A stretch of 48,956 bases of DNA from a virus. Location of the stretch: the IMG/VR virus record IMGVR_UViG_3300044910_000229, positions 1 through 48,956 of that record, one strand, 5' to 3'. Numbering within the stretch: position 1 is the first letter of the stretch; every line of letters starts with the position of its first letter. Below the pieces are notes generated by a model that made no database searches, was not told where the DNA came from, and saw nothing but the letters and a program-made list of their open reading frames with translations. Below are positions 8,599 through 37,790 of the stretch, one piece after another. The position numbers were made by a program, and so were the translations under genes.

Positions 8599-8631
8599 AA
8601 TTATAATCTCCATATATACAAGTTCTAACTG

Positions 8632-14449: not shown

Positions 14450-17254
14450 TTACCTTTTATATGTACTTAAATATTTAAAAAAGAAATCTCTTTCAGTTTC
14501 TTCATCTAGGACATAAAATTCAATAACCTCGCCATTAACATTTTGAAATGCTAATTTTTCTGGTAATTTACCTTTATACGCGATATTATTGATAGCGCAA
14601 TAACTATAAAAATGTTGCACTACACCTAAAGATAATCTGATAGTCCAATCATCGCCGCAATTTTTTAATTCTTTATGCCACATCTCCATTCCGCGTTCAA
14701 GCCAAGTAAAGTCAGGTTTTGGATGATCTGTTATAAATTTACTCCAATAATCAACTAAGATATAATGTTTAGCAAAAACTCTATCTGGATATGTTCTAAC
14801 ATTTTTATAAATTAAATCAGAATTTCTACCTATAGATTTTCTTTTTAATAATTCATGATTAGCTAAACCATAATGTAAAATCCAAGCATAATCTTGCCAA
14901 AACATTTTACCTAAGAAATGCTCACCGTCTTTAGATGGATATTCATGCACAACACCGGTAAATCTAATTTTACCTCGTTTAAATAATCTATCGTGCATCA
15001 CATCAACGTTAATACCCATTTTATGAGAATCAAGTGACATACATTGCTTTTGTTTTAGTAACATACCATCATAATAATCGCTAGTAATGTACTTAAATAG
15101 ATTTTTCCAACTTTCAACTTGTTCGTCGGCGTCAATCCAAAAGATATAATCTCCAGATGCTTGATCAATAGAATAATTTCTAGCTCTAGAAAAATTACCT
15201 AACCCATCTTCTTCTAACCATTCTAAATCATAAATTTTATCTGTATATTTTTCAACAATTCGTTTAGTATCATCAGTAGAACCGGTATCAACGACAATAA
15301 TTTCATCTACAAATCCATCTAACGATTTTAAACAACGAGAAATATTATCTTCTTCATTTCTAACAATTATGCAAGCAGAAATAGATTTATATGGTCTAGT
15401 TTTCATCCATTTTTCGTTATAATCAATTTTACCAAATTCAATATTATCGCCTTTAGAAGAATTAAACCAAAAAGAAATATTGCTACACGGTTCGTTTCTT
15501 CTACCTAACACATTGGCAGATGAGTGAATTAAAGTAAAATCTATGTTTTTTAATAATTGTTTAATATCAGATCTTTCAAAATGATGAACGTGATTAAGTT
15601 CTACTTTATTCATTGTCATATTATCCCACGGTCCTGTTGGAGTAGTAAAATAAAATAACGTATCAAGTTGAGCTAATTTAGTTACTGTATTAAGAAATTC
15701 GTCAGTATCCTCAATATGTTCCATTACCTCGCCAAGAATAACTACATCGGGTTTAATATCATAATTTAAAATATTAAATACAGAATCGCAAATAAATTTT
15801 AATTGAGGATATTTAGATTTATACTTTTTTTCAACAAAATCTAACACAGGCTTATAAGTATCAACTAATGTCATTTCTGAAATATTAAGAGAAAATCGTT
15901 TCAGTAATGGTAATGATAATACACCATCATTACTTCCTATGTCAACAATTTTTAATTTTTTACTAGGAGCTTTTTTAATAATATCATCAACTAAATTTAT
16001 TAGATGAGTACCCCTTTCATCTAACATAAAATCTTCGTCTGAGTTATAATCTTCTCTAACTAATACAACATTTTTATTGTAATAATCAGCATTATCTAAC
16101 AATTTTCTATATTTTTCATCTCCTGTTAATTTATAAGCAGCTACTATATCTGAATTATAAACTAACTGGTCTAAAATTTTAGATTTATATTTTTCAAATC
16201 TTTTATTAAACATAGAATCAATTTCTCTGTTCCAAGATTTGGCTACGTTTTGCCAAGAATATTTTTCAATATCTACTCGCGCCTTATCTACAGCTTGATC
16301 ATACAAATCTTTATCTTGATATTTTTTTACTAATGATAAAAATTCATCAAAATATTCTTGTGTATCGTATTTTGATTTAACTGTAGTTTGAGATTTAACA
16401 GTTTCTGATAATGCAAAATTATGTGTAGCAATAATCATACATTCATTATATTGAGCTTCAATAGCATTAATACAACTAATTTCAGGAAAATCTGTTGGAT
16501 ATAGCATGTATGCGCAATTAGAAAGTAATTCATAATATTCGCGTTTAGGTAAATTACCTATCATTTTAACATTAGTTGAATACTCTAATAATTCTTCAAC
16601 CTCATTATAAATTTTTTGAACTTCTTCCGGAGTTCCTAGTGTATGCTCATATCCGCATAAATGTAATATTGCATCAGGATTAATATCTAACACTTCTGGC
16701 CATATTTTTTCAAGTAGATATTTCAATCCTCGTTCGGGTCTAGAAGCATAGATATAATTATTTTTCTTTTCTTCAAATGATTTTTTTGTTGTTATAATTG
16801 ACTGATCATAACCATTAGAAGTTTTCCAAATATAATTAGTTGGTTCAATAGTATAATTGTTAACAAATAACGATTTATGATATTCACTTAAACAAAATAC
16901 TCTATCTGCTACGCCCATAGCATCACGAAAATTATTAGAATCAATATCATGACACCAAAGAACGTTAAGTTTTGAATCTAATGGAACTGCTAGAAAATCT
17001 GTAAATCTACTTACAATTACAACATCAAATTGAGAAATATCATCTGCCATATATTTTTCTAATGGTCGATAATCAACATTATCATAAATTCCAGGTTTAT
17101 CGCATTTACAATAAACTGTTACTTCATGACCTAAGGCTGCAGTTTCTTTAGCCATATAGATCAAGGCTGATTCTGACCCACCTAACGCTTTTTCGTAAAC
17201 TGAATTACCATTAAATTCTAATCCAGCAGTTACAAAACAAATACTTTTATTCAT
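14450..17254 (-). CDS. Tri-domain fusion: GT4 glycosyltransferase, SAM methyltransferase, GT2 glycosyltransferase
   Basis: The 934 residues carry three enzyme domains. Residues 1-350 are GT-B of GT4 type: GGSESALIYMAKETAALGHE at the N-terminus, ASRPERGLKYLLE near 170, and LPKREYYELLSNCAYM with PEISCINAIEA in the donor-binding region. Residues about 415-590 are a class I methyltransferase: KIVDIGSNDGVLSLPLL (about 433) and VVILGEVMEHIEDTDEF (about 505). Residues about 620-860 are GT2: SACIIVRNEEDNISRCLKSL, DEIIVVDTGSTDDT (about 650) and the DxD-type metal motif WIDADEQ (about 705). No membrane segment is seen, so it should act in the cytoplasm. Such a fusion could add two sugars and one methyl group to the same glycan. 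The target (virion protein, phage DNA or host surface) is unknown. Confidence 0.9.
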   Translation of the reverse strand: MNKSICFVTAGLEFNGNSVYEKALGGSESALIYMAKETAALGHEVTVYCKCDKPGIYDNVDYRPLEKYMADDISQFDVVIVSRFTDFLAVPLDSKLNVLWCHDIDSNNFRDAMGVADRVFCLSEYHKSLFVNNYTIEPTNYIWKTSNGYDQSIITTKKSFEEKKNNYIYASRPERGLKYLLEKIWPEVLDINPDAILHLCGYEHTLGTPEEVQKIYNEVEELLEYSTNVKMIGNLPKREYYELLSNCAYMLYPTDFPEISCINAIEAQYNECMIIATHNFALSETVKSQTTVKSKYDTQEYFDEFLSLVKKYQDKDLYDQAVDKARVDIEKYSWQNVAKSWNREIDSMFNKRFEKYKSKILDQLVYNSDIVAAYKLTGDEKYRKLLDNADYYNKNVVLVREDYNSDEDFMLDERGTHLINLVDDIIKKAPSKKLKIVDIGSNDGVLSLPLLKRFSLNISEMTLVDTYKPVLDFVEKKYKSKYPQLKFICDSVFNILNYDIKPDVVILGEVMEHIEDTDEFLNTVTKLAQLDTLFYFTTPTGPWDNMTMNKVELNHVHHFERSDIKQLLKNIDFTLIHSSANVLGRRNEPCSNISFWFNSSKGDNIEFGKIDYNEKWMKTRPYKSISACIIVRNEEDNISRCLKSLDGFVDEIIVVDTGSTDDTKRIVEKYTDKIYDLEWLEEDGLGNFSRARNYSIDQASGDYIFWIDADEQVESWKNLFKYITSDYYDGMLLKQKQCMSLDSHKMGINVDVMHDRLFKRGKIRFTGVVHEYPSKDGEHFLGKMFWQDYAWILHYGLANHELLKRKSIGRNSDLIYKNVRTYPDRVFAKHYILVDYWSKFITDHPKPDFTWLERGMEMWHKELKNCGDDWTIRLSLGVVQHFYSYCAINNIAYKGKLPEKLAFQNVNGEVIEFYVLDEETERDFFFKYLSTYKR

Positions 17255-17256
17255 AA

Positions 17257-17868
17257 TTAATTTACTCTCTTATAGGCTTTTTTATGTTTAGATATAGCAA
17301 ATATTTCAAATCCGCCTGTTAACATTTTATCTTCAATTTGTTGATGATCGTAATATGGAATATCATCAAATATTATAATTCCATTCATAGAGAGTCTAGG
17401 AATAAAAAAATCTGCTTCTAGCAATACGGCATCTGTACAGTGAGGACCGTCAATAAATACTAAAGCATAGTTGGATTCGATTGTTTTAACTTGATTATAC
17501 ACTGGAATACCGTCAGAATATCTAGAGAAAAATTCAGTATCTTCTAAATTAAAAAATTGAAAATTAAATCCTAAATCAGTTATATAAGAAAATAAATTAG
17601 GAATCGTTTCGTCTCTCATACGATTATTATAATCAAATTTTATAGCTAAATGCAAATCGCTAGAAGCATAATCTATATTTCCGTAAGGATCAACACAAAC
17701 AAATACTCTATTAGTATCTTCAAATCGTTCTAAAGAATCTGCGATTAGTATTGCAGATCCACCTTTTCGAGTCCCTAACTCTATTATATTTCCAAAGATA
17801 TTATTTTTTGAAATATATTCACAAGCATCATTTAATATTTCATAATCTATACTATCAGTTTCAAACAT
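17257..17868 (-). CDS. Class I SAM-dependent methyltransferase
   Basis: The 203-residue protein has motif I IIELGTRKGGSAILIA (28-43), an acidic strand end VCVDPYGN (about 58-65), and ALVFIDGPHC (about 133-142) with IIIFDDIPYYD after it. This is the layout of the Methyltransf_24 / CmcI-like group, in which DG-H and DD residues may bind a metal and the acceptor hydroxyl, so O-methylation is the best guess. The N-terminus has no transit or membrane signal. AAAGGA precedes the ATG, and the start overlaps the end of the GT9 gene by eight bases. Its place among glycosyltransferases suggests a sugar acceptor. Confidence 0.83.
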   Translation of the reverse strand: MFETDSIDYEILNDACEYISKNNIFGNIIELGTRKGGSAILIADSLERFEDTNRVFVCVDPYGNIDYASSDLHLAIKFDYNNRMRDETIPNLFSYITDLGFNFQFFNLEDTEFFSRYSDGIPVYNQVKTIESNYALVFIDGPHCTDAVLLEADFFIPRLSMNGIIIFDDIPYYDHQQIEDKMLTGGFEIFAISKHKKAYKRVN

Positions 17869-19231
17869 TATATTTTTCCTTTAATACAGCTTTTAGTTCG
17901 TCATATACTTCATTCCAAATTTCCGGAGTAACTTGTCTAATTAACCTTACGTTTTCTCCATACCAACTAGAATTTGGTTTACCTTCGGCCCAGACATAAT
18001 ATTCCATGATAGGAATTAATATAATAACTTGTTTACCTAGCGCAGCCGCTGCATGTGCAACTGAAGTACACGAAGTTATTACTAAATCTAGGTTATGGAT
18101 TACACCTAGTAAATCTTCAAATGTACTTAACTCAAATTGCAAATCAACAACTTCATTATGATTTTCTAATTGCGCTAACCCAACATCTCGTTGAATAGAA
18201 TATAAACTCCAGTTATTGCCTTCTGGTAAGGAATTTATAACTTCTGTTAAATTAACGCTGCGATGTAATTCATGATCATATCTTGGATTGCCTGCCCATC
18301 GCAACCCAACTTTAAATTCTCCAGATAATTTATGTTTCTCAATATAGTCAGGTTTAGCTTGTAAATAAGGGCCGTACCATAAATCGTTAGCATCAATTCC
18401 TAATGTTTTTGGTAATGCCATCATTGGAGTCCAACAATCATAATCTTCTTTTTTATAGTCTGAAATATCAATAATTTTTTCAAATGGTAAATGATTGTAA
18501 ATTGTATGTACTTTATGAGTAGTCATAATAGAAACTTTCATACCAAGATCTCTTAAATGTTTTACAAATCTAACATTAATAATCTCGTCGCCAATGCCGC
18601 CTTCACCTACTATTAATATATGTAAATTTGGTTTTGGTTTACCGTTCCATTCAGGGATATCCCAAACTTTAGAATATGATCCAAATACATTTAACTTTCT
18701 ACCAATGTAAAGGTGTTCCATACCTTTTTTAAAATCTCCATCTTGAATATAATGCACTCCAAGATTAAATAAGATCGAATCCGCTTCTCGTTGATCGTAT
18801 TTCCATAAATTTTCTTCCATTGATTTAACAATATCATAAGATTCTTGTTTTTTATTACACGCAAATAATGCAGCTGAATAATCTAATAGATAGCGATCAT
18901 TATCTTGAATATTATCCATAACAAATTCATAATATTCTACAGATTTAGTTGGCTTATTTGCTGACAAATAAATTTTAGCTAAATTAGACTTAATTGCTAC
19001 AGTTTGTTCAATAGCTTTAGATAGCGATAATGCTTTTTCGCCATATTCTATAGCAGTAACAAATCTTTTTGCTTTATCATAAGAATAACTATATAAATCA
19101 TAACCTAAAATATCAAGAGGAACTATTTTATTTTTTTCAAATAGTTCCATTAAATTTACTATTTCGTCTAATAAATCCGATCTTGATAAAATATCAACTG
19201 TTTGCTTTACTGCATCATAATCTGTAGCCAT
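17861..19231 (-). CDS. TPR protein with a C-terminal GT9-like (heptosyltransferase-type) glycosyltransferase
   Basis: I start the protein at 19231 (MATDYDAVKQ), with GGAA upstream, and not at the first in-frame ATG at 19291, which lies deep in the preceding gene; this gives 456 residues. Residues about 20-185 are helical TPR-like repeats (IEYGEKALSLSKAIEQ, SVEYYEFVMDNIQDNDRY, LFNLGVHYIQDGDFKKGMEH). Residues about 200-456 match the GT-B fold of GT9: LIVGEGGIGDEIINVRFVKHL (209 on), VGLRWAGNPRYDHELHRSV, and the donor-site stretch LVITSCTSVAHAAAALGKQV. This is the plan of bacterial TPR-GT9 proteins. It probably adds a sugar within the same pathway as its neighbours. Confidence 0.84.
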   Translation of the reverse strand: MATDYDAVKQTVDILSRSDLLDEIVNLMELFEKNKIVPLDILGYDLYSYSYDKAKRFVTAIEYGEKALSLSKAIEQTVAIKSNLAKIYLSANKPTKSVEYYEFVMDNIQDNDRYLLDYSAALFACNKKQESYDIVKSMEENLWKYDQREADSILFNLGVHYIQDGDFKKGMEHLYIGRKLNVFGSYSKVWDIPEWNGKPKPNLHILIVGEGGIGDEIINVRFVKHLRDLGMKVSIMTTHKVHTIYNHLPFEKIIDISDYKKEDYDCWTPMMALPKTLGIDANDLWYGPYLQAKPDYIEKHKLSGEFKVGLRWAGNPRYDHELHRSVNLTEVINSLPEGNNWSLYSIQRDVGLAQLENHNEVVDLQFELSTFEDLLGVIHNLDLVITSCTSVAHAAAALGKQVIILIPIMEYYVWAEGKPNSSWYGENVRLIRQVTPEIWNEVYDELKAVLKEKYNV

Positions 19232-20018
19232 TATTTTCCAATTCCAAAATAAACTCGTATTCCGATGATGATAATTTTTCTTCAGGAACACAAATAAAAT
19301 TTATATCCAAAACAAAAGTTTTATAACCTAACGATTCAATTAACGTTTTTAGTTCAGTTGCACCGTTATATTGCTTATAATATTCAATATACATTAGTGG
19401 TCTGTGCTTGTTAATTGTAGCAACAGCACCATTAACTACGTCTAGTTCCATCCCTTCAACATCAACTTTAATAATAGAAATATTTTCTATATCTTTAAAG
19501 TATTCATCAATAACAATTTGATCAACAATTTCGCCATTACCAAAATCTAGATCTTGGCCAACATCATCAAATTCTCCAGTAAGACCTACACTACCAAAAC
19601 TAGCCGGTTTATAATAATCTACTTTAGGTACAGTTATCGGTTTAGTAGACGATCCGACTGCAGTTTTTTCCGCATATACGTTATCTACGCTGTTTAATGC
19701 TAAGTTACCACATAGCATTTGATAGATCTGACGTTGCGGTTCAAATGCATACACAGTTCCGTTTGCTGGTAAAATTGCATCAGCAACTTGGACAGAGAAC
19801 GCGCCGATGTTAGCACCAACATCAATCACTGCAGGATACTTTTTATCTTTAAGATACTGGCGTAAGATCCACATTAATTCCATATTTTCTGAACCCATGT
19901 TCATTAAATGATATCCAACTCCGGGAAAATTTTCTGTAGGATTATAATCAAATCGGTTTACTATCATCATACCAAACTCAGTTGGTATTATAACATTTCT
20001 TCTCGGTTTTCCTATCAT
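19215..20018 (-). CDS. FkbM-family methyltransferase
   Basis: The start is the ATG at 20018, which overlaps the TGA of the sulfotransferase gene (ATGA) and has GGAAG upstream; an in-frame TTG at 20033 is less likely. The 267 residues carry motif I VIDVGANIGAFSVQVA (about 64-79), the acidic VYAFEPQRQIYQML, and IIKVDVEGMELDVVNGA, all diagnostic of the FkbM / Methyltransf_21 group that O-methylates sugars and related hydroxyls. No signal peptide is present. It is the second gene of the glycan operon. The acceptor is likely to be a sugar made by the neighbouring transferases, by inference from position. Confidence 0.88.
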   Translation of the reverse strand: MIGKPRRNVIIPTEFGMMIVNRFDYNPTENFPGVGYHLMNMGSENMELMWILRQYLKDKKYPAVIDVGANIGAFSVQVADAILPANGTVYAFEPQRQIYQMLCGNLALNSVDNVYAEKTAVGSSTKPITVPKVDYYKPASFGSVGLTGEFDDVGQDLDFGNGEIVDQIVIDEYFKDIENISIIKVDVEGMELDVVNGAVATINKHRPLMYIEYYKQYNGATELKTLIESLGYKTFVLDINFICVPEEKLSSSEYEFILELENNGYRL

Positions 20019-20794
20019 TTCATGTTCTTCCAAAAATCCATTTCTTCTAAATGGTTAAATAAATCTGGCGGAAGAATTGTTTGACGTTCTTTAAATTGAA
20101 CTTTATTTCTAACGTGATGTAACCCTTTAATGTTCATATCAAAATCAAATTCGTCGTAATCACCAACTACATTATCAAAATCATGATCAAACCAAGATTC
20201 TCCAATAAATTCATAAATTTTCTTCATGACTAATTTAGGATTCTTAGCCAATTGATCATATTGCACTACCATAACATTTTCTTTTTTTGCACCAAATAAC
20301 GCTTCTTTAACACCATTATATGCAAACCCAACAAATGAACTAGGGTCTGTTAAATACTGTGCTCTAGAGTAAACAGACATTCCTGCTCCTTCCGGAAACA
20401 TAGACGGAACATCGTATGGATTTTTAGCAAATAAAGTTTCAAATGAATCTACAATCCACGGAATTGATCGTATACAAACAATAATTTTTGCATCTGGATA
20501 TAAATCAGCCAATAACGGCGTTAGATAAGTCCAACCTCGATTAGTATCAAACACTACGTCATTTGAATCTTTATAGTAAGTTTCTGTAACAGAATGGATT
20601 AATTCTTTGCGTTTTTCTGGAGGGCATTGGAATCTATATCCGCCCTGTGATTGACTTTCTTGAATAATAGCTCGTGTAAATCTAGCAAGTGGACCAGAAA
20701 TACTTGCTCCAAAATTTGGATTTTGGTGTAAAATGGAGGAAAGAAGGGTTGTTCCAGAACGAGGCAACCCTGAGATAAAATGAATTTTTTGCAT
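20015..20794 (-). CDS. PAPS-dependent sulfotransferase
   Basis: The 259-residue enzyme has the 5-prime phosphosulfate loop ISGLPRSGTTLLSS (7-20) and the 3-prime phosphate motif KIIVCIRSIPWIVDSF (103-118) with R109 and S117. It transfers sulfate from PAPS to a hydroxyl or amine. VVFDTNRGWTYLTPLLADL (80-98) and VVQYDQLAKNPKLVMKKIY also match the family. There is no membrane anchor, so the substrate is cytoplasmic. It is the first gene of the leftward cassette, directly under a sigma70-like promoter, and an APS-kinase-like gene that could feed it PAPS ends the same cassette. Sulfotransferases occur in a number of marine phages; their targets are unknown. Confidence 0.9.
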   Translation of the reverse strand: MQKIHFISGLPRSGTTLLSSILHQNPNFGASISGPLARFTRAIIQESQSQGGYRFQCPPEKRKELIHSVTETYYKDSNDVVFDTNRGWTYLTPLLADLYPDAKIIVCIRSIPWIVDSFETLFAKNPYDVPSMFPEGAGMSVYSRAQYLTDPSSFVGFAYNGVKEALFGAKKENVMVVQYDQLAKNPKLVMKKIYEFIGESWFDHDFDNVVGDYDEFDFDMNIKGLHHVRNKVQFKERQTILPPDLFNHLEEMDFWKNMK

Positions 20795-20858: not shown

Positions 20859-21491
20859 TTATTTTTTTTCTAAATCATATTCACGTAATTCAACTGTTGT
20901 TTGAATAGCATTAATTTCAGCAGTTTTTGTAGATTCCCAATTAAAACAATCTTGAATATGCGTCATTATAGAATTTACAATTAATTGTAAATCAGTTTTA
21001 TTAATTACAAAAAACCCTTCTGGGAATTTCCATTCAGCAGAGTAATCATCATTCGTTAATAATAATGCTTGAGAATACATTACTCTAGTTTCTCTATCAG
21101 TATACAAAGTTAATATTTTTCCATTAATATCTCTTGTAATCGGAGTTGTTTCTTTAATCCAACGTAAGTTTGCCAATGCGGCTTTTAAATTAACTTTTAT
21201 AGATTCTATAGGAAATTCTTGCGCGTAAAATTCTGCTATGTGATTATTAGATTCATCATAATAGAATTTTGGTCCAGCTATTTGATCAAATGTGTCATTA
21301 AGTTCTGTTGGATTAACAATTTGCGTTGGAACTAATTTTAAAGATTCATTAAAAATTAATGGTTCGCTTGGCGGATGTTCTATAGTAACTCGTTGATTTA
21401 ATTCTTCAGAAACAAAGTGTTCAAAATATGCTTGATGCCAATCTCTCGGACCTGTTATTATATTTTCGTTTTTTAATAATGTGTATGCCAT
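20859..21491 (-). CDS. DUF4376-like protein, possible tail-fibre assembly factor
   Basis: The protein has 210 residues. The C-terminal part (about 105-210), with LRWIKETTPITRDI, LYTDRETRVMYSQALLL, KFPEGFFVINKTDLQLIVNS, MTHIQDCFNWESTKTAEI and TTVELREYDL, matches the DUF4376 domain found in tail-fibre-assembly-like phage proteins beside adhesin genes. The N-terminal 100 residues are not recognised, but PTELNDTFDQIAGPKFYY may be a small structural domain. It is the last gene of the leftward fibre block, directly after the RCC1 proteins, so it may chaperone or attach them. That role is inference from position. Confidence 0.75.
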   Translation of the reverse strand: MAYTLLKNENIITGPRDWHQAYFEHFVSEELNQRVTIEHPPSEPLIFNESLKLVPTQIVNPTELNDTFDQIAGPKFYYDESNNHIAEFYAQEFPIESIKVNLKAALANLRWIKETTPITRDINGKILTLYTDRETRVMYSQALLLTNDDYSAEWKFPEGFFVINKTDLQLIVNSIMTHIQDCFNWESTKTAEINAIQTTVELREYDLEKK

Positions 21492-21500
21492 TTTTTAACC

Positions 21501-22625
21501 TTATATTATTTTTAATGCTAATGTATAATACTGACCAGCACTAACTTGTCTCCAGTCACTTAAAGTTCCGACTTGCGTTGGGCTGAATATATTGGTGGTA
21601 TTTGATAATCCTAGTTGGCCATTGCCATTATACCCCCAGGTCCATAATGTTCCGTCTGTTTTGATCGCTGCTGTATAAAATACCCCGCCAGCAACTTGAC
21701 TCCAACTACTTAAAGTGCCAACTTGTACTGGGCTACTTCTGTCAGCCGTATCAGATAACCCTAATCCTCCAAAACTATTATATCCCCAATTCCATAATGT
21801 TCCGTCTGTTTTAATCGCTGCTGTATGCATATATCCAGCAGCAACTTTGCTCCAATTGGACAAAGTTCCAACTTGTACTGGGCTTGATCTGTGCGCGGTA
21901 TCCGATAGTCCTAGTTGACCACTATTATTATAACCACACGCCCATAATGTTCCGTCTGTCTTACTTGCTATTGTGTGCTTATATCCACAAGAAACTTGAT
22001 TCCAGTTACTTAAAGTTCCAACTTGTACTGGACTACTTCTATTTGTTAAATCAGATAATCCTAGTTGACCTGTATTATTTAAACCCCAAGTCCATAATGT
22101 GTTATCTGTTTTAATCGCGGTTGTGTGCATTCCACTCCCGCTAGCAACTCGACTCCAGTTACTTAAAGTTCCAACTTGTACTGGACTACTTCTATTTGTT
22201 AAATCAGATAATCCTAAGTTACCTTGACCATTATAACCGCAAGCCCATAATGTTCCGTCTGTCTTAATCAATGCTGTATGATACTTTCCAAGAGCAACGT
22301 TACTCCAGTTACTTAAAGTTCCAACTTGTACCGGGCTTGATCTAGCAACTGTATTTGATAATCCTAATGCACCAAAAAGATTATAACCCCACGCCCATAA
22401 TGTTCCGTCTGTCTTAATTGCTACTGTATGTCGGTATCCAACAACAACTTGATTCCAGTTAGATGCAGTCCCGATTTGTACCGGACTACTTCTATTTGTT
22501 AAATCAGATAATCCTAGTTGGCCAGCATCATTATTCCCCCAAGCATACATATTCCCAGTTGCCTTAAACATAGCCGTAGACATATATCTTGTTTGTAATT
22601 TTGTTCCAGTTACTTTATAAGTCAT
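21501..22625 (-). CDS. RCC1-repeat beta-propeller protein, single seven-blade propeller
   Basis: The 374 residues consist almost entirely of RCC1-type repeats. I count seven WG/CG blade cores (AWGNN, AWGYN, ACGYN, TWGLN, ACGYN, NWGYN, TWGYN), exactly one propeller. The last strand YYTLALKII and the first strands [14 protein letters not shown] can close the ring. The blade consensus [34 protein letters not shown] is 50 residues long. No signal or catalytic motif is present. The ATG overlaps the stop of the next RCC1 gene (ATGA). Being among fibre genes, it is probably a virion surface or receptor-binding protein. RCC1 folds bind proteins or other ligands in other systems, so the ligand here is open. 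Confidence 0.88.
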
Positions 22626-25558
22626 AATAGTGAAGCCAAAGTTGTATTATCCATTGCATAAACGCTAACGTATGTATTTAGCGTTCCGACTTGTACAGGG
22701 CTACTTGTATTAGTATAGTTTTCCTGACCTAATTGACCGGAACTATTTAAACCCCACGCCCAAAGAGTTCCATCCGTTTTTATAGCAACAGAATGATAGT
22801 TACTTGCTGCAATTTTGCTCCAATTAGATAAATTACCAATTTGCGTTATACTTGAACGATGAGTTACATCTCCTAATCCCAATTGACCATAACTATTATT
22901 ACCTATAGACCAAAGAGTTCCATTAGTTTTTAAAAATAATCCATACGTTAATCCAGCAACGACTTTAGACCAACCAGTATTTAACGATATTTGAATAGGG
23001 GAATACACGTTAGAACTAGATCTACCTAACCCGCCAAAATTATTATTTCCCCAAGCCCATAATGTATTATCTGTTTTAATAGATAATGTGTGATAATATC
23101 CGCAAGAAACTTGACTCCAGTTACTTAAAGTACCAACTTGTACTGGGCTTGATCTATTTGTTTGATCAGATAATCCTAATTGACCGGCAGCATTACTACC
23201 CCAAGCCCATAATGTTCCATCTATCTTAATCGATGCTGTATAAGTTAAGCCGCCGATGACTCGACTCCAGTTACTTAAAGTTCCGACTTGAACTAGGTTA
23301 CTTCTATTCGCTATATCCGATAACCCTAATTGACCATTAGTATTATAACCGCACATCCATAATGTTCCATCTGTTTTTACTGCTGCTATATGATGCCTGC
23401 CACCCGCTACTTGACTCCAGTTAGATAGAGTGCCAACTTGTACTGGGCTATATCTAAATGTTAAATCTCCTGATCCTAATTGACCCCAAGAATTATAACC
23501 CCAAGTCCATAATGTTCCATCGGTTTTAATCGCTGCTGTATGATAACCTCCTGTAACAATTTGACTCCAGTTAGATAAAGTTCCGACTTGTACTGGGCTT
23601 GATCTATCGGTTGTATCAGATAATCCTAATTGACCAGAACTATTCCGACCCCAAGTCCATAATGTTCCGTCTGTGTTTACTGCTGCTGTATGATACTGTC
23701 CACAAGCAACTTTACTCCAATTAGATAGAGTTCCAACTTGTACTGGACTCGATCTATGGGTTAAATTAGATAATCCTAATTGACCATAACTATTATTTCC
23801 CCAAGCCCATAATGTATTATCTGTTTTAATAGATAATGTGTGATAATATCCGCAAGAAACTTGACTCCAGTTGGTTAAAGTTCCAACTTGCACTGGACTA
23901 GAATAATTTGTTATATTGTTAGTTCCTAATTGACCATAACTATTATTACCCCAAGTCCATAATGTTCCGTTTGTCTTGATCGCTAATGTATGGTAGAGTC
24001 CACTCGAAAATTTAGTATAAGTTGTGGCATTATATAACCCCGGATACGAAGGTAGTACAACTTTTTGAACAACAGGATCAATACCAACTTGACCAAAACT
24101 ATTTAACCCCCAACTCCAAAGCGTAGTATCTGATTTAATATAATAACCAAATCTATCGCCAAACGATGCTTCTATTGCAGCATCAATTACAACTGGCGCA
24201 GCAATAATAATTCCGTTTAATGACGAATTAACTTCACTCGGATTTATTGATGAATAATCAAAATGAGATTTTGCAGTTAACAAATAATCTGCATTATTAC
24301 CAAATGCATACAAATTGCCATCAGACTTGATAGCAGCACCCCACGCAGTATTTTGAGTGCCTGTTGGGAATTTGCTCCAATTGGCAGAAGACACTACTTG
24401 ATTAAGATCAACACGGTATGAAGTAAGATTGTACCCTAGTTGACCAAAATTATTCAAACCCCAAATCCGCGTTCCGTCTGTGTTAATTGCTATTATATGA
24501 TCAGCTCCGCAAGCAACTTTACTCCAGTTAGCTGCAATTCTGACTTGCACTGGGCTTGATCTACTGGCAGTATCTCCGAGTCCTAATTGACCATAAGCAT
24601 TATAACCGCAAACCCATAATGTTCCGTCTGTCTTGATTGCTGCTATATGACGGTTACCACAAAAAATTTGGCTCCAGTTACTTAAAGTTCCGACTTGTAC
24701 TGGACTTGATTTACTATTAAATGACTCGCCTATTCCTAATTGACCATAAAAATTATAACCACAAGTCCATAATTGTCCATTTGAATTAATTGCTGCGGTA
24801 AGGTGATATCCGCAACTAACTTTACTCCAGTTATTTAAAGTTCCAACTTGTACTGGGCTTGATCTAGTTGCAGTATCAGATAACCCTAAGTTTCCATACA
24901 AATTATAACCCCAAGTCCACAATGTTCCATCTGTTTTAATTGCTGATGTATGGCGATATCCGCAAGAAATTTGGCTCCAGTTGGTTAAAGTTCCGACTTG
25001 TACTGGGCTTGATCTATTTGTTAAATCAGATAATCCTAATTGCCCAGAACTATTCCGACCCCAAGTCCATAATGTTCCGTCTGTTTTTACCGCTGATGTA
25101 TGATAATGTCCACTAGCAATTTTACTCCAGTTGGTTAAAGTTCCGACTTGTACTGGGCTTGATCTATGAGTTAAATTAGATAATCCTAATTGACCATAAC
25201 TATTATTACCCCAAGTCCATAATGTTCCGTCTGTTTTAATTGCTGCTGCATGATAATATCCTTTGCCAGCAACTTGACTCCAGTTACTTAACGTTCCGAC
25301 TTGTACTGGGCTTGATTTATTATATATATCGCCTAATCCTAATGCACCGAAACTATTCAAACCCCAAATCCATAATGTTCCGTCTGTCTTGATCGCTGCT
25401 GTATTAAGTAATCCGCAAGCAACTTGACTCCATGGTATATTACCAATTGAGGTTGGAGCTGAAGTTAAAAACCGATAATTCCTACCAACTTCCCAAAGTG
25501 AGTTATCATTTTTTATTACATAATTTGAATTATTTTTTATACCATAATATTGAGCCAT
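22622..25558 (-). CDS. RCC1-repeat protein with about 19 blades
   Basis: The protein has 978 residues, built from about 19 RCC1-like blades with little else. Most are near copies of the 50-residue unit ([23 protein letters not shown]), but the first, [10 protein letters not shown], and a middle pair around residues 395-470 ([12 protein letters not shown] and its flanks) are diverged and may mark propeller borders. Nineteen is not a multiple of seven, so either further degenerate blades exist in the diverged middle or one ring is incomplete. It overlaps or abuts its RCC1 neighbours on both sides. GGAAT precedes the ATG. The role as an adhesin is inferred. Confidence 0.87.
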
Positions 25559-27010
25559 TTATATTCCGTAAACTACTTTTGTAGGTAAAGGTGTTGTATC
25601 TACTAACCCTAATTGACCATACCCATTATCACCCCAAGTCCATAATGTTCCGTCTGTTTTAATTGCTGCTACATAAAACATTCCAGAATAAATTTGACTC
25701 CAGTTACTTAAGGTTCCAACTTGTACTGGGCTTGATCTATTGACTTGATCAGATAACCCTAATTGACCATACACATTATTTCCCCAAGTCCAAAATGTTC
25801 CATCTGTTTTAATCGCTGTAGTCAGGCGATATCCGCAAGCAATTTTACTCCAGTCACTTAAAGTTCCAACTTGTACTGGGATTGATCTAGGCGCGGTATC
25901 CGATAATCCTAATTGACCATAAAAATTATAACCACAAGTCCATAATGTTCCGTCTGTTTTAATTGCTGCTGTATGATAATACCCGCAAGAAATTTGACTC
26001 CAGTTACTTAAAGTTCCGACTTGCACTGGGCTGGATCTATTTGCGGTATCAGATAACCCTAAGTTTCCATACACATTCCACCCCCAAGCCCATAATGTTC
26101 CATTTGATTTAATCGATGCTGTATAATATCGCCCACAAGCAATTTTGCTCCAGTTACTTAAAGTTCCAACTTGTACTGGGCTTGATCTATGAGTTAAATC
26201 AGATAATCCTAATGCACCAAAAAGATTTTGCCCCCAAGTCCATAATGTTCCATCTGTTTTAATTGCTGCTACCAACTCTGATCCGCTAGCAATTTTACTC
26301 CAGTTACTTAACGTTCCAACTTGTACTGGACTTGATCTATGAGTTAAATCAGATAATCCCAATTGACCATAAGAATTAATCCCCCACGTCCATAATGTGT
26401 TATCTGTTTTAATTGCCAATGAATGTTGAAATCCACCAGCAATTTTACTCCAGTTACTTAAAGTTCCGACTTGTACTGGGCTTGATCTATTGGCAGTATC
26501 CGATAACCCTAATGCACCATAACCATTCCAACCCCAAGTCCATAATGTTCCGTTTGGGTTGATTGCTGCTGTATGATACAAACCTCCACTAACGATACCC
26601 CAGTTACTTAAAGTACCAACTGGTACTGGGGTGTATATGGTTGATGTAATAGCAAATGCAGTCCATGCAAGAGATTGAGGAGTATTTTCTAAAGCTCCAA
26701 AGGCTCCCCGAATATACGTTTTTGAAGTATTAGCTCTATCTGAAAATATTATTGCGCTCGGTAATACAGCAACTATATCGGCAAAATTATCTAAATCAAG
26801 TTTTGGAACATTAAATGTTCCAAAACTTGAATTAAATGCATTACCTACATTTAACGCGTAATATCCAGAAGAACTAATATTATTTTGACCAAATACAACA
26901 GTTTTTCTACTAGAAATTTTTAACGTTTCTATTGGAAAATAATTTATATCATCTGCTTTAATATATGTATAATCTAAATCAACAGAATTTAGTTTATAAT
27001 TAGAACTCAT
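25559..27010 (-). CDS. RCC1-repeat protein with a distinct N-terminal segment
   Basis: The 483 residues have about 130 N-terminal residues that are only weakly repeat-like (VVFGQNNISSSGYYAL, AIIFSDRANTSKTYIRGAFG), followed by seven clear blades from TWGWNGYGALG to TWGDNGYGQLG. The N-terminal part may be two decayed blades or a docking domain. AGGAG lies ten bases before the ATG, which overlaps the stop of the largest RCC1 gene (ATGA). Its C-terminus abuts the start of the 978-residue gene. The order and coupling imply that all four RCC1 proteins are made together and perhaps assemble together. Confidence 0.87.
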   Translation of the reverse strand: MSSNYKLNSVDLDYTYIKADDINYFPIETLKISSRKTVVFGQNNISSSGYYALNVGNAFNSSFGTFNVPKLDLDNFADIVAVLPSAIIFSDRANTSKTYIRGAFGALENTPQSLAWTAFAITSTIYTPVPVGTLSNWGIVSGGLYHTAAINPNGTLWTWGWNGYGALGLSDTANRSSPVQVGTLSNWSKIAGGFQHSLAIKTDNTLWTWGINSYGQLGLSDLTHRSSPVQVGTLSNWSKIASGSELVAAIKTDGTLWTWGQNLFGALGLSDLTHRSSPVQVGTLSNWSKIACGRYYTASIKSNGTLWAWGWNVYGNLGLSDTANRSSPVQVGTLSNWSQISCGYYHTAAIKTDGTLWTCGYNFYGQLGLSDTAPRSIPVQVGTLSDWSKIACGYRLTTAIKTDGTFWTWGNNVYGQLGLSDQVNRSSPVQVGTLSNWSQIYSGMFYVAAIKTDGTLWTWGDNGYGQLGLVDTTPLPTKVVYGI

Positions 27011-30000
27011 TTAAATATCACTCCTGCTGAATAAGCTTTAACTTCTACTTTAACAGCAGTATTTATCGATCCAATTCTAACTGGGCTACTTTTATTTGCT
27101 GTATCTCCTGTTCCTAATTGACCATAACCATTATAACCTAATGCCCATATACTTCCATCTGTTTTTGTAAATAAAGTTGCATCTAAATTTGTAGAAACTG
27201 AATTCCAAGTATCTCCAGTAACTGATTTTTTTACTGGATTAGTATATTGTACAAAATCTCCTAATTGACCATTATTATTAAAACCCCAAGTCCATAATGT
27301 TCCGTCTGTCTTACTTGCTATTGTGTGCATATATCCAGCAGAAATTTGGCTCCAGTTACTTAAAGTTCCGACTTGCGTTGGACTTAATCTATTTGTTAAA
27401 TCAGATAATCCTAATTGACCAGAACTATTCCGACCCCAAGTCCATAATGTTCCGTCTGTTTTGATTGCCGCTGTATAATATTCACGAGCAGAAACGTTAC
27501 TCCAGTTACTTAAAGTTCCGACTTGTACTGGGCTTGATCTATGAGTTAAATTAGATAATCCTAATTGACCATAACTATTATCACCCCAAGTCCATAATGT
27601 TCCGTCTGTTTTAATTGCAGTTGTGTAAGATCTCCCACAAGCAATTTTACTCCAGTTACTTAAAGTACCAACTTGTACTGGGCTTGATCTATTGGCAGTA
27701 TCTGATAATCCCAATTGACCAATATTATTATTTCCCCAAGTCCAAAATGTTCCATCTGTTTTAATTGCTGATGTATGGCGATACCCGCAAGCAATTTTAC
27801 TCCAGTTACTTAAAGTACCAACTTGTACTGGGCTTGATCTATTGGCAGTATCTGATAATCCCAATTGACCATTAATATTAAAACCCCAAGTCCATAATGT
27901 TCCGGCTGTTTTAATTACTGCTGTATGATAATATCCGCAAGCAATTTTACTCCAGTCACTTAAAGTTCCGACTTGCACTGGACTCGATCTACTGTTTATA
28001 TCTGATAATCCTAATGCACCATAAAAATTAGCTCCCCAAGTCCATACTGTTCCATCTGTTTTAATCGATGCTGTAGACCACCCTCCGCAAGAAATTTGGC
28101 TCCAGTTACTTAAAGTTCCGACTTGCGTTGGACCTGATCTATTTGTTAAATCAGATAACCCTAATACACCATAACTCGCAGTATTACCCCAAGTCCATAA
28201 TGTTCCGTCTGTCTTACTTGCTATTGTGTGCATATATCCAGCAGAAATTTGGCTCCAATTGGACAAAGTACCAACTTGTACTGGGCTTGATCTATTGAAT
28301 TGACCATTTGGAAAATTATTTGAATTATATCTACCAGCTTCCCATATAGCATTAGTTGTATCAACTATCCATATATTATCATCATCCATACTAGCAGTAG
28401 ATATCGATATACCGCCTATTTGTACCGGACTACTTCTATGAGTTTGATCTGATAATCCTAATTGACCGTAATTGTTTTTACCAAATACATATCCACCATA
28501 ACTTTTATCTACTAACATTGCTCCATAATCTGAACAATATACTTTAGTCCAATCGCTACGAGTTCCAATTTGAACTAAACTTGAACGATAAGTTGTATCT
28601 GATATGCCTAATTGACCATAAGAATTATTACCTACAGACCAAGCTGTACCATTAGTTTTAATTCCAACAAAATGATTTCTACCAACATCAAATGTGATCC
28701 AAGTAGATGTATAATCGCTCCAAGGTATATCATCTGACAATCCTACAGGATATATACTATTGTTTATGTCTAAACAGAAAAAATCTGTATCGCTTGAAGA
28801 AATCTGTTTAAATGTTTTAGAAGTTGTTGCTTTAACAGGTACGCTAGTGTTCGCACCATCGAATGGACGAGAAATTCCCAATTGACCAAAACTATTCAAA
28901 CCCCAAGACCATAATGTTCCGGCTGTCTTGATCGATGCTGTATGATATTGCCCGCAAGCAATTTTACTCCAGTTACTTAAAGTTCCGACTTGTACTGGGC
29001 TTGATCTATTGGCAGTATCCGATAACCCTAATGCACCATAACCATTATAACCGCAAGTCCATAATGTTCCGTCTGTTTTAATCGCTGCTATATGAGAATA
29101 CCCGCTAGCAACTTGACTCCAGTCACTTAACGTTCCAACTTGTACTGGGCTTGATCTACTGACTGTATCTGATAATCCTAATTGACCATAAATATTACGA
29201 CCCCAAGACCATAATGTTCCGTCTGTCTTGATCGATGCTGTATGATACTGCCCGCATGCAACTTGACTCCAGCCACTTAAAGTTCCGACTTGTACTGGGC
29301 TTGATCTAGTTGCAGTATCAGATAACCCTAATTGACCGGAAGTATTTAAACCGCAAGTCCATAATGTTCCGTCTGTTTTAATCGCTGCTGTATGCCCATA
29401 ACCGCAAGCAACTTGACTCCAGTCACTTAAAGTTCCAACTTGCGTTGGGCTTAATCTATTTGTTAAATCAGATAATCCTAATTGCCCAGTATTATTACGA
29501 CCCCAAGACCGTAATGTTCCATTTGAATTAATCGCTGCTGTATGCCCATAACCGCAAGAAATTTGGCTCCAGTTATTTAAAGTTCCAACTTGTACTGGGC
29601 TATATCTATCTGTTTGATCAGATAATCCTAATGCACCAAAAAAATTACGACCCCAAGTCCATAATGTGTTATCTGTTTTGATCGCTACTGTATGACGATA
29701 TCCGCTAGCAACTTTACTCCAGTTACTTAAAGTTCCAACTTGTACTGGGCTTGATCTATTGGTTATATCTGATAACCCTAATCCTCCAAAAAAACTATTA
29801 TATCCCCAAGTCCATAGTGTTCCGTCTGTTTTAATCGCTGCTGTATTCATATATCCAGCAGCAACTTTGCTCCAATTGGTTAAAGTACCAACTTGCATTA
29901 AAAAACTTCTATTGGCTAAATCAATAATACTTCCAGATGTATATAATTGATTTCTTTCATTTAAAAATGCTGTAGAGGCTCCACTACGAATTATACTAAT

Positions 30001-30186
30001 ACTAGTCCAATTGTATGCACTAGATATAACAACCGGGCTTGATCTAGCAACTGTATTTGATAATCCTAATTGACCATAAGCATTATTACCAAACATTTGA
30101 ACTCCGCCTAATGGAAGATAAAATGCATAATCTGAAATTTTTGCTAGATACTGAAATGGATCATTTCCGCCTTCTTTGAATGCCAT
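27007..30186 (-). CDS. RCC1-repeat protein with about 21 blades (three propellers)
   Basis: The largest of the four, 1059 residues. It starts MAFKEGGNDPFQYLAKIS, then about 21 blade cores, three times seven. Blades 2, 10 and 13 (LYTSGSIIDLANR, SIYPVGLSDDIP, IWEAGRYNSN) are diverged, the rest are near copies of the 50-residue consensus. The DNA at 27431, 27581, 27731, 27881 and 28031 repeats with a strict 150-base period. GGAG precedes the ATG, which overlaps the TAA of the S74 fibre gene by one base. A three-propeller rod would make a plausible virion appendage, but no virion anchor is recognised. Confidence 0.88.
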   Translation of the reverse strand: MAFKEGGNDPFQYLAKISDYAFYLPLGGVQMFGNNAYGQLGLSNTVARSSPVVISSAYNWTSISIIRSGASTAFLNERNQLYTSGSIIDLANRSFLMQVGTLTNWSKVAAGYMNTAAIKTDGTLWTWGYNSFFGGLGLSDITNRSSPVQVGTLSNWSKVASGYRHTVAIKTDNTLWTWGRNFFGALGLSDQTDRYSPVQVGTLNNWSQISCGYGHTAAINSNGTLRSWGRNNTGQLGLSDLTNRLSPTQVGTLSDWSQVACGYGHTAAIKTDGTLWTCGLNTSGQLGLSDTATRSSPVQVGTLSGWSQVACGQYHTASIKTDGTLWSWGRNIYGQLGLSDTVSRSSPVQVGTLSDWSQVASGYSHIAAIKTDGTLWTCGYNGYGALGLSDTANRSSPVQVGTLSNWSKIACGQYHTASIKTAGTLWSWGLNSFGQLGISRPFDGANTSVPVKATTSKTFKQISSSDTDFFCLDINNSIYPVGLSDDIPWSDYTSTWITFDVGRNHFVGIKTNGTAWSVGNNSYGQLGISDTTYRSSLVQIGTRSDWTKVYCSDYGAMLVDKSYGGYVFGKNNYGQLGLSDQTHRSSPVQIGGISISTASMDDDNIWIVDTTNAIWEAGRYNSNNFPNGQFNRSSPVQVGTLSNWSQISAGYMHTIASKTDGTLWTWGNTASYGVLGLSDLTNRSGPTQVGTLSNWSQISCGGWSTASIKTDGTVWTWGANFYGALGLSDINSRSSPVQVGTLSDWSKIACGYYHTAVIKTAGTLWTWGFNINGQLGLSDTANRSSPVQVGTLSNWSKIACGYRHTSAIKTDGTFWTWGNNNIGQLGLSDTANRSSPVQVGTLSNWSKIACGRSYTTAIKTDGTLWTWGDNSYGQLGLSNLTHRSSPVQVGTLSNWSNVSAREYYTAAIKTDGTLWTWGRNSSGQLGLSDLTNRLSPTQVGTLSNWSQISAGYMHTIASKTDGTLWTWGFNNNGQLGDFVQYTNPVKKSVTGDTWNSVSTNLDATLFTKTDGSIWALGYNGYGQLGTGDTANKSSPVRIGSINTAVKVEVKAYSAGVIFK

Positions 30187-31217
30187 TACTTATTCTCCAA
30201 TTTTTCATTTAACTCTTTAATAGCTTCTAATAAAATTCCTATCAATGCAGTATAAGCGATAGATTTAACACCATCAACTGTATTAACTAATTCCGGCAAT
30301 ACGGTTTCTAATTCTTGAGCAATTAAACCGTAACTTTTATTTCCAGTAGATTTCCAATTAAAACTTACACCTTGCAATTTAGTTAAAATATCCAAAGAAT
30401 TATCAATTTTTTGAATATTCTCTTTTAAATTTATATCAGAAGCAGTGTTAAAATTAGTTGCATATAATGTATTATCCCCTGAAGTATAATATAAATTTCC
30501 AGTATCTACTCTAGCATCTGTCCATGTACTTGTTGAATTAGCAGAAAGACCGATATAATATGTTGTAGATGCTGCTACACTAGATAAGGTAGCTCCACCG
30601 GATAGCGTAGACCAAGCAAATGCACTGCCAGTCCAATTTAAATATCCAGTTGATGGTGTAAGAAAACCGGTAGTGCTTGCACCTGTTTGGTATAAAATTT
30701 GATTAGCAGACCCGCCTGCGATATTAGTTGCGTTGTCACCGCCAATTGCGCCCCATACGGTACCATTGTATCCTTCAAATTTTAATGTTGAAGTGTTAAA
30801 ACGTAAATTACCCTGCGCTGGTGATGAAGGTAATGTTGATGTTGTTGGTAAAACTAATGATGATGAAAATTTTGCAGACGATACTTGTAATCTGTTAGTT
30901 CCATCGTCAGTTCCGGTACCAATTAATACGTTACCGCCATATTGTGCTAGTTTTACTAAACCAGTATCTAATACTTCTATACTTGGAATACCAGATACAT
31001 CGTTAGCTGCAAAAATTGTACCAGTTAAACTATTAGTAACGGAAAGTAATTGTCCGGCAGATCCATCAAAACTAAGCATACCATTTAAAGTTGGGTATGC
31101 AGTTAATGTAATATTCTGAGCTGCAGTACTTGCGTCTGCCCCAGAAAATACAATCTTAGGGTCGCCTGCTGCGCTTATATTTGGTGTAATAACTATATTT
31201 TTATCAGCTAATGCCAT
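30186..31217 (-). CDS. Tail fibre with C-terminal S74 intramolecular chaperone
   Basis: The protein has 343 residues. Residues 1-255 are fibre-like, with FSGADASTAAQNITL, GNVLIGTGTDDGTNRLQ and a GNLRFNTSTLKFEGYNG segment. Residues 260-343 are a Peptidase_S74 / endosialidase chaperone domain: SDINLKENIQKID at its start, GVSFNWKSTGNKSYGLIAQE in the middle and a terminal helix LLEAIKELNEKLENK. The family trimerises the fibre and cuts itself off before the conserved Ser, here S260. The gene heads the RCC1 block and has a late promoter match upstream. Its RCC1 neighbours lack such a chaperone, so it could aid their assembly, but that is speculative. Confidence 0.87.
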   Translation of the reverse strand: MALADKNIVITPNISAAGDPKIVFSGADASTAAQNITLTAYPTLNGMLSFDGSAGQLLSVTNSLTGTIFAANDVSGIPSIEVLDTGLVKLAQYGGNVLIGTGTDDGTNRLQVSSAKFSSSLVLPTTSTLPSSPAQGNLRFNTSTLKFEGYNGTVWGAIGGDNATNIAGGSANQILYQTGASTTGFLTPSTGYLNWTGSAFAWSTLSGGATLSSVAASTTYYIGLSANSTSTWTDARVDTGNLYYTSGDNTLYATNFNTASDINLKENIQKIDNSLDILTKLQGVSFNWKSTGNKSYGLIAQELETVLPELVNTVDGVKSIAYTALIGILLEAIKELNEKLENK

Positions 31218-31240: not shown

Positions 31241-31248
31241 TATTTATT
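31241..31248 (-). promoter_or_regulatory. T4-type late promoter upstream of the S74 fibre and RCC1 genes
   Basis: Minus strand AATAAATA fits NATAAATA. It overlaps the stop of the preceding LamG gene and lies 24 bases before the ATG of the S74 fibre, with AAGGA between. It is a candidate driver of the S74-RCC1 block. Confidence 0.55.
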
Positions 31249-37779: not shown

Positions 37780-37790
37780 GTTGTGTTCCT

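What the first reader, a model, noticed from the sequence alone, without database searches (positions are those of the whole stretch)
21501..30186. A four-gene, 8.7-kb array of RCC1 beta-propellers in a phage fibre locus
Seen: four consecutive, translationally coupled genes (1059, 483, 978 and 374 residues) built almost wholly from a 50-residue RCC1 repeat, over 50 copies in all, between fibre genes and a DUF4376-like gene. RCC1 propellers are best known from eukaryotic regulators; tandem arrays of this size in a phage tail region are not something I know as a described system. Inference: they form a multi-propeller virion appendage or a set of alternative receptor-binding proteins.
Basis: partly seen in the sequence, partly recalled or inferred. 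Interest (0 to 1): 0.85.

Follow-up and report, generated by a model that had tools for sequence, protein, structure and literature searches.

The report
Hypervariable propeller-protein array in a phage
A bacterial virus carries four neighbouring genes made almost only of repeated propeller blades, a multiplied version of a gene cassette found in many viruses, in which what is predicted to be one face of the propeller changes fast, as expected of parts that recognise host cells.

Summary
Four coupled minus-strand genes (1059, 483, 978, 374 aa) at 21501-30186 consist largely of 50-residue RCC1 blades. A locally built profile finds 54 stretches; PF00415 finds 49. They lie between an S74-ended fibre gene and a DUF4376 gene in a T4-like phage.

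RCC1 arrays in phages are in print, and in phages W70 and GAP32 such proteins were found in virions by mass spectrometry. What I did not find in print is that this array is a multiplied form of a recurrent cassette: S74 fibre, RCC1, DUF4376, RCC1, RCC1, sulfotransferase, TPR protein. Blade numbers centre on 7, with rarer larger proteins.

Against a 372-kb relative with the same four genes, flanking genes and some stretches are near identical, but most blades differ and have almost lost positional identity. Exact 60-90-base tracts between blades, and strain differences, point to conversion between blades. Changes concentrate on loops predicted to share one propeller face, rich in tyrosine.

Best reading: virion adhesins that vary a recognition face by blade conversion and allele exchange. 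Virion location and binding are inferred. AlphaFold2 models failed. Most novel reading: the linked sulfotransferase and TPR protein chemically modify the propellers.

The parts
27007..30186 (-). RCC1 gene A, 1059 aa, 21 blade stretches, best read as three 7-bladed propellers in one chain
   Evidence: the propeller number is inferred from the blade count
25559..27010 (-). RCC1 gene B, 483 aa: no blade detected before residue 127, then 8 blade stretches (first and last partial)
22622..25558 (-). RCC1 gene C, 978 aa, 18 blade stretches with a gap (residues 414-478) in the middle
21501..22625 (-). RCC1 gene D, 374 aa, 7 blades, best read as one propeller
   Evidence: UVR8 as nearest solved relative, E 2.9e-49
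30186..31217 (-). S74-ended tail fibre gene, coupled to gene A
   Evidence: PF13884 E 7.7e-17
20859..21491 (-). DUF4376 protein (phrog_10508, tail fibre)
20015..20794 (-). sulfotransferase (PF13469), part of the recurrent cassette
19215..20033 (-). FkbM-type methyltransferase (PF05050)
17861..19291 (-). TPR protein with a weak glycosyltransferase-9-like C-terminal part, part of the recurrent cassette
14450..17254 (-). 934-aa protein: glycosyltransferase 1, methyltransferase and glycosyltransferase 2 domains
28387..28716 (-). conserved stretch of gene A (residues 491-600), near identical in the 372-kb relative
27010..27234 (-). conserved C-terminus of gene A (residues 985-1059)
26840..27010 (-). 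conserved N-terminus of gene B (residues 1-57)
22625..23026 (-). conserved C-terminus of gene C (residues 845-978)
27788..27871 (-). 84-base tract identical to 27638-27721 (neighbouring blade); holds 3 of the 5 strain differences found in the array; read as a conversion tract

Best explanation
The four proteins are virion-borne adhesins that work with the S74-ended tail fibre. Each is one or more 7-bladed RCC1-type propellers made in step with the fibre. One face of each propeller (the loop 40-43 and the long loop 7-25 of the 50-residue blade) is the recognition surface; the core and opposite face are conserved for folding and assembly. The surface is diversified by conversion and recombination between blades that are about 75% identical in DNA, and by exchange of blade blocks with related phages, while flanking genes and some stretches stay fixed. 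The array is a multiplied form of a phage cassette (fibre, RCC1, DUF4376, RCC1, RCC1, sulfotransferase, TPR protein). Shown: gene structure, cassette, uneven variability by blade position, near-loss of positional identity, strain differences in the array. Inferred: fold closure, the face assignment (from predicted strands), virion location, fibre attachment, ligand binding, conversion as the mechanism.
For: Position: S74 to RCC1 within 15 bases in 34 of 37 distinct neighbour pairs, DUF4376 to RCC1 in 47 of 48. Cassette: 52 of 74 TPR loci and 36 of 77 sulfotransferase loci (window and G011 strains left out) hold RCC1, against 1 of 74 fibre-query loci; those control loci are shorter (mean 11.8 against 16.1 kb), but with at least 4 kb downstream of the fibre match it is 0 of 39. 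Blade numbers: 144 of 217 RCC1 proteins (complete ORFs, one per cluster) have exactly 7 detected blades, 32 have six. Variability: in 59 orthologous pairs from 27 locus pairs, substitution is 0.436 on loops 7-25 and 40-43, 0.149 on loops 30-33 and 49-2, 0.271 in strands; position permutation p 0.0045; same trend, with slightly other loop bounds, in the 73 variable blades of window and relative. The five most variable positions hold 30% tyrosine. Mosaic: against the 372-kb relative, aa identity is 66-75% in the four genes, 94% in DUF4376, 99% in the TPR protein; pS 0.2-0.6 in most blade stretches, 0-0.16 in A 501-600, A 1001-1059, B 1-100 and C 901-978. Shuffling: the positional counterpart is best match for 6 of 37 variable blades and 3 of 3 constant ones; exact non-allelic tracts of 60 bases or more: 7 in the window, 0 between genomes; of 40 or more: 22 and 8. 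The 5 differences from two strain contigs over 21.3 kb all fall in the array, three inside an 84-base copy of the next blade. Virion precedent: W70 and GAP32 (passages). PHROGs: weaker matches to three families called tail proteins.
Against: No proteomics for this phage. In 121Q the RCC1 array is not beside annotated fibre genes, so position does not fix function for all phage RCC1 proteins. AlphaFold2 gave mean pLDDT 40.9 and 26.9, so fold closure, propeller number and the face assignment rest on sequence and low-confidence local strands. Blade variability by position had been seen before loops were assigned to faces. A weak positional signal remains (0.753 against 0.740, p 0.0004), and the relative itself has no non-allelic tract of 60 bases and 11 of 40 or more, so conversion is shown best in the window only. 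DUF4376 is as divergent as or more divergent than RCC1 in many locus pairs, so RCC1 is not always the fastest gene; one RCC1 pair is 96% identical where TPR is 92% (L185-L186). Conserved ends are not a family-wide rule: first 15 residues 0.57, middle 0.67, last 15 0.48 identity. The variable and constant blade classes were set by me after seeing the alignment. The best PHROGs matches are filed under DNA metabolism.
Confidence: 0.6

Rival explanations
1. General virion decoration: the propellers coat tail or capsid (like whiskers or Ig-like domains) and bind surfaces loosely, without setting host specificity.
For: Three RCC1 proteins of W70 are virion proteins with 141-233 spectra each and no shown place (passage). 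Hairy tails are reported for CBB and phAPEC6 (passages); phAPEC6 has eleven RCC1-like proteins.
Against: CBB has whiskers but no homologue of the GAP32 RCC1 virion protein (passage). Fast change on loops of one predicted face and coupling to an S74 fibre fit recognition better.
Confidence: 0.2
2. DNA-organising proteins packed with the genome, as the name 'regulator of chromosome condensation' implies.
For: Suggested for phAPEC6 and, by reference, W70 (passages); PHROGs file the best-matching families under DNA metabolism; pI is 8.5-9.4 here.
Against: In the phAPEC6 passage the idea rests on eukaryotic RCC1. Here the genes sit in the fibre block, coupled to a fibre gene, loops of one predicted face vary fast, and the excess of K+R over D+E is 3 to 14 residues per protein.
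Confidence: 0.08
3. Proteins that act in or on the infected cell (export, effector or superinfection control), not in the virion.
For: The neighbourhood is rich in sugar- and sulfate-transfer genes, which could act on host surface sugars.
Against: No clear hydrophobic export segment (19-residue Kyte-Doolittle maximum 0.78-1.71; a crude test). Related proteins are found in virions.
Confidence: 0.08
4. The blade pattern comes only from exchange of whole alleles between phages; conversion between blades of one genome plays little part.
For: High synonymous difference in blades beside near-zero stretches fits import of old alleles. The relative has no non-allelic tract of 60 bases or more.
Against: 7 such tracts inside the window, some between different genes, none between genomes; a strain difference cluster lies inside an 84-base copy of the next blade.
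Confidence: 0.25

Closest known systems
RCC1 proteins of Escherichia phage W70 (W70_237-239, phrog_4219) and GAP32 gp1; arrays in 121Q, PBECO4, phAPEC6
   Same: Several RCC1 genes in one tailed phage, consecutive in W70 and 121Q; those of W70 and GAP32 found in virions by mass spectrometry (passages); the 374-aa protein matches phrog_4219 at E 3.7e-58.
   Different: In 121Q the array lies among hypothetical genes, with no annotated fibre, sulfotransferase or TPR gene in the 28.7 kb shown.
Synechococcus phage S-SRM01 gp334-gp345
   Same: Same cassette: S74 fibre, RCC1, DUF4376, RCC1, TPR protein, RCC1, sulfotransferase.
   Different: Single 6- to 7-blade proteins; no multi-propeller chains. In its paper I saw one passage; a find for RCC1 and 'condensation' gave 0.
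Staphylococcus phage phi11 receptor-binding protein gp45
   Same: A propeller used in phage host recognition (abstract).
   Different: Five blades inside a trimeric multidomain protein; here 7-blade RCC1 units in genes of their own.
UVR8, human RCC1 and other solved RCC1 propellers
   Same: Repeat and sequence: UVR8 6xzl E 2.9e-49, RCC1 1a12 E 7.2e-30. The variable pair 41-42 aligns with the UVR8 'GWRHT' motif, recalled as part of its dimer face.
   Different: Eukaryotic; the cassette is not known there (recalled).
T4 gp37-gp38 adhesin arrangement (recalled)
   Same: A separate adhesin gene straight after the distal fibre gene.
   Different: RCC1 propellers instead of gp38; binding to the fibre tip not shown.

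Membership tests
RCC1/BLIP-II beta-propeller superfamily | tandem repeat of about 50 residues matching PF00415/PF25390 | tested here: met
   49 matches over cut-off
RCC1/BLIP-II beta-propeller superfamily | closed propeller of seven blades | tested here: inconclusive
   blade counts 7 and 21 in genes D and A, 8 and 18 stretches in B and C; 144 of 217 family proteins have 7; AlphaFold2 models unusable
Eukaryotic RCC1 (Ran exchange factor, chromatin binding) | Ran or nucleosome binding | not testable with these tools
   sequence relation only
Phage virion RCC1 proteins (W70, GAP32) | sequence family phrog_4219 (given for W70) | tested here: met
   E 3.7e-58, 2.7e-132, 4.1e-54, 3.2e-124 for the 374-, 978-, 483- and 1059-aa proteins; phrog_7220 matches all four better
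Phage virion RCC1 proteins (W70, GAP32) | presence in purified virions | not testable with these tools
   metagenome contig, no virus in hand
S74-RCC1-DUF4376-RCC1-sulfotransferase-TPR cassette (defined here) | all five gene kinds on one strand, RCC1 coupled to the S74 fibre | tested here: met
   in the window and the 372-kb relative DUF4376 follows all RCC1 genes instead of the first
DGR-diversified receptor-binding protein | reverse transcriptase in the genome | tested here: not met
   0 of 3 records (G000, G001, G011) match PF00078; only G011 is long, and completeness is unknown
phi11-type propeller receptor-binding protein | five-bladed propeller within a trimeric stem protein | tested here: not met
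   7 or more blades per protein, no stem region seen; oligomeric state untested
Protein-tyrosine sulfotransferase (for gene 20015-20794) | sequence relation and PRSGTTL sulfate-donor motif (motif role recalled) | tested here: met
   best seven solved relatives of the profile are protein-tyrosine sulfotransferases, E 3e-11 to 2.9e-6
Protein-tyrosine sulfotransferase (for gene 20015-20794) | catalytic Glu of the GEETR stretch (recalled) | tested here: not met
   in the alignment the GEETR stretch faces 's-i-s-g-p' of the phage profile
Glycosyltransferase family 9 (for gene 17861-19291) | PF01075 match | tested here: inconclusive
   5 of 10 members match at E up to 1, best E 0.026, the window protein 14.3 bits against a cut-off of 22

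The most novel reading that the evidence does not exclude
The cassette makes chemically modified propeller adhesins: the linked sulfotransferase (nearest solved relatives are protein-tyrosine sulfotransferases) and TPR protein, which some phages carry as one fused protein, modify the tyrosine-rich variable face of the RCC1 propellers or the fibre. The phage would thus vary its recognition surface both by blade conversion and by sulfation or glycosylation.
Probability: 0.2. Interest if true: 0.87.

Novelty: new variant of a known kind. Interest (0 to 1): 0.62.

Why it matters
It gives a function to test for phage proteins still filed as 'regulators of chromosome condensation': fast-changing, fibre-linked recognition parts, spread over many uncultured phages and at least one cultured Synechococcus phage (S-SRM01) with the whole gene set. 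If true, repeat-protein faces diversified by blade conversion would be a way to vary host recognition without a retroelement. The linked sulfotransferase and TPR protein make virion modification testable.

Tried and rejected
Rejected or failed: AlphaFold2 of genes A and C (alignments of 4 and 3 sequences) gave models too poor for fold search, so none was run; only local strands of A were used. Diversity-generating retroelement: no reverse transcriptase in three records. Cyanophage host: no psbA in 10 records; host left open. Eukaryotic-regulator reading: not supported by context. Blade-order comparisons had register faults (ungapped; insert columns mishandled) and are replaced. Single-sequence searches with the TPR and DUF4376 proteins found only near-identical strains and the 372-kb relative, so profiles were used. 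Paper hits for 'RCC1' in PMC10218006, PMC12906663 and PMC5723332 were locus or culture-collection numbers in the passages shown.

Deduplicated, 36 of 48 TPR loci hold RCC1; the sulfotransferase table becomes 29 TPR+RCC1+, 6 TPR+RCC1-, 0 TPR-RCC1+ and 28 with neither, Fisher p 2e-12. Truncated loci can lose TPR and RCC1 together. Both profiles were seeded from loci that carry RCC1, so close relatives are favoured. Of 41 TPR loci with 8 kb upstream, 10 lack RCC1. In one search, 20 of 217 RCC1 proteins had fewer than six detected blades. Strains of the window and G011, or of the window alone, were left out of counts as stated.
Full report
OBSERVATION. Four open frames run on the minus strand without gaps: A 27007-30186 (1059 aa), B 25559-27010 (483), C 22622-25558 (978), D 21501-22625 (374). 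Neighbouring genes overlap by 1 or 4 bases, or abut. All four are far above the Pfam cut-offs for RCC1. PF00415 finds 49 repeats in the record; a profile built from blades of the window and its 372-kb relative finds 54 stretches, 21 in A, 8 in B, 18 in C and 7 in D, some partial. Upstream is a fibre gene ending in the S74 chaperone; downstream are DUF4376, sulfotransferase, FkbM methyltransferase and a TPR protein. The rest of the record is a T4-like structural region; among the 15 records listed, the sheath is nearest to those of large phages such as Phosso, Atu_ph07 and PA5oct, below 60% identity.

RELATIVES. Three other contigs hold the whole array and two hold part of it, nearly identical. 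A 372,016-base contig (G011, locus L056) has the same four genes with 1055, 482, 978 and 376 aa, the same flanks and the same downstream genes. Related contigs with 71% and 57% identical sheaths (G005, G009) have no RCC1 match in the whole record, and no match to the window's S74, DUF4376, sulfotransferase, FkbM or TPR protein appears in the stretches read, 39.8 of 98 kb and 38.5 of 176 kb; G007 keeps a sulfotransferase but has no RCC1 match. The block thus looks like an accessory module.

CASSETTE. With profiles of the TPR protein and the sulfotransferase I searched IMG/VR (the best 80 places each). Leaving out strains of the window and G011, RCC1 genes lie within about 10 kb in 52 of 74 TPR loci and 36 of 77 sulfotransferase loci, against 1 of 74 loci found with the fibre gene; of the latter, 0 of 39 with at least 4 kb downstream. 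Among 76 sulfotransferase loci, RCC1 occurs in 36 of 42 with a TPR gene and in 0 of 34 without (Fisher p 9e-16). The commonest order is S74, RCC1, DUF4376, RCC1, RCC1, sulfotransferase, TPR (8 loci, some from one contig). The S74 and RCC1 genes are within 15 bases in 34 of 37 distinct pairs, DUF4376 and the next RCC1 in 47 of 48. In 50,697 phage records tblastn finds the TPR protein in three phages (four records), S-SRM01, AG-345-E08 and BUCT-ZZ01, and all three are in the list of RCC1 carriers; in BUCT-ZZ01 it is the next gene after RCC1. In 84,980 prokaryote genomes a narrower profile gave three loci, none with RCC1 in the DNA held, of which the best has only about 120 bases upstream. Eight ORFs (four distinct) fuse sulfotransferase and TPR protein, all in RCC1 loci. 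Of 217 RCC1 proteins (complete ORFs, one per cluster, window strains left out), 144 have exactly 7 detected blades, 32 six and 20 fewer; larger ones have 8 to 34, among them 14 (five) and 21 (three). The window's array is a multiplied form of this cassette.

VARIATION. Against G011 the four proteins are 72.1 (A), 72.6 (B), 74.6 (C) and 66.1% (D) identical, DUF4376 94.3%, the TPR protein 99%. Difference is patchy: silent-site difference is 0.2-0.6 in most blade stretches and 0-0.16 in A 501-600, A 1001-1059, B 1-100 and C 901-978. After aligning blades in register (two searches were faulty), the blade at the same position in G011 is the best match for only 6 of 37 variable blades, mean identity 0.753 against 0.740 expected at random (p 0.0004), while 3 of 3 constant blades match their own position; the two classes were set after seeing the alignment. 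The window has 7 exact tracts of 60-90 bases between non-allelic blades; G011 has none, and none exists between the two genomes off the diagonal (40 bases or more: 22, 11 and 8). Two strain contigs (L011, L013) differ from the window at the same 5 sites in 21.3 kb, all in the array, which is 41% of that stretch; three lie in an 84-base tract that in the window equals the neighbouring blade. A third contig (L015) is identical to the window there. In the locus pair L022 and L026, with TPR and sulfotransferase 99% identical, the RCC1 proteins are 60-63% identical, but DUF4376 is as divergent as RCC1 or more so in many other pairs.

ONE FACE. Strands predicted in A, read by eye for the blades at 173-373, lie at blade positions 3-6, 26-29, 34-39 and 44-48 (low confidence, consistent with the RCC1 fold as recalled). 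In an up-and-down sheet, loops 40-43 and 7-25 then lie on one face, loops 30-33 and 49-2 on the other. In 59 orthologous pairs from 27 locus pairs the change is 0.436 on the first face, 0.149 on the second and 0.271 in strands (p 0.0045 over positions); the top positions are 8, 10, 11, 13, 19, 21, 39, 41, 42 and 43. In the variable blades of window and relative, positions 8, 10, 11, 41 and 42 are 30% tyrosine, then serine, asparagine, phenylalanine and arginine. Positions 41-42 align with the UVR8 'GWRHT' motif, recalled as its dimer face.

KNOWN AND NEW. RCC1 arrays in phages are described. Passages read: PMC5259590 (13 copies in 121Q; GAP32 protein in virions), PMC7247149 (eleven in phAPEC6) and PMC11370258 (three in W70 virions). 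A propeller is known in phage receptor binding (PMC4901313, abstract). PMC9218822 (passages and title) reports that highly repetitive propellers keep arising from single blades and that some RCC1/BLIP-II ones are viral. In the listings of ten paper searches and the passages read I saw no account of the cassette, of one-face variability or of blade conversion in phage RCC1 proteins; the library lacks most subscription journals.

MODIFICATION. The sulfotransferase profile's best solved relatives are protein-tyrosine sulfotransferases (E 3e-11), but the recalled catalytic glutamate is not aligned. The TPR protein resembles glycosyltransferase 9 only weakly (5 of 10 members, best E 0.026). The same block has three methyltransferase domains in three genes, a protein with two glycosyltransferase domains and an APS-kinase-like gene. 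That these enzymes act on the propellers is the most novel reading and is untested.

VERDICT. The sequence claim stands. The likely function is host recognition by fibre-linked propellers; this is inference from position, variation and distant virion relatives.

Noticed in passing
window 37456-39872: Two strain contigs (L050, L051) differ from the window at 138 sites over 20189-41217: 102 in the fibre gene 37791-39872, 30 in the 107-aa gene before it, 1 between genes and 5 in the RCC1 array. This may be a second fast-changing host-range region.
   Followed up: partly
L056:9335-10483: The relative's S74 fibre gene matches the window's 850-aa fibre gene (E 3e-140) more strongly than the window's S74 gene (E 9e-82), so fibre parts may be swapped between genes.
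   Followed up: no
window 13472-13942: APS-kinase-like gene (PF01583, 33.9 bits, cut-off 21.1) six genes from the sulfotransferase: a possible local supply of the sulfate donor.
   Followed up: no
window 14450-17254: 934-aa protein joining a glycosyltransferase 1, a methyltransferase and a glycosyltransferase 2 domain.
   Followed up: no
window 31247-34901: Three consecutive Laminin_G_3 (lectin-like) proteins of 403-409 aa near the array.
   Followed up: no
L022:3612-5384, L034:3607-5448: Sulfotransferase fused to the TPR protein as one gene next to RCC1 genes.
   Followed up: partly
L147:7449-12332: Clostridioides phage LIBA6276 has one RCC1 gene of 4,884 bases directly after a tail fibre gene, with another annotated tail fibre gene two genes on.
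   Followed up: no
window 5185-8613: Long tail sheath gene (1142 aa) with relatives in Phosso, Atu_ph07 and PA5oct at about 39-47% identity.
   Followed up: no
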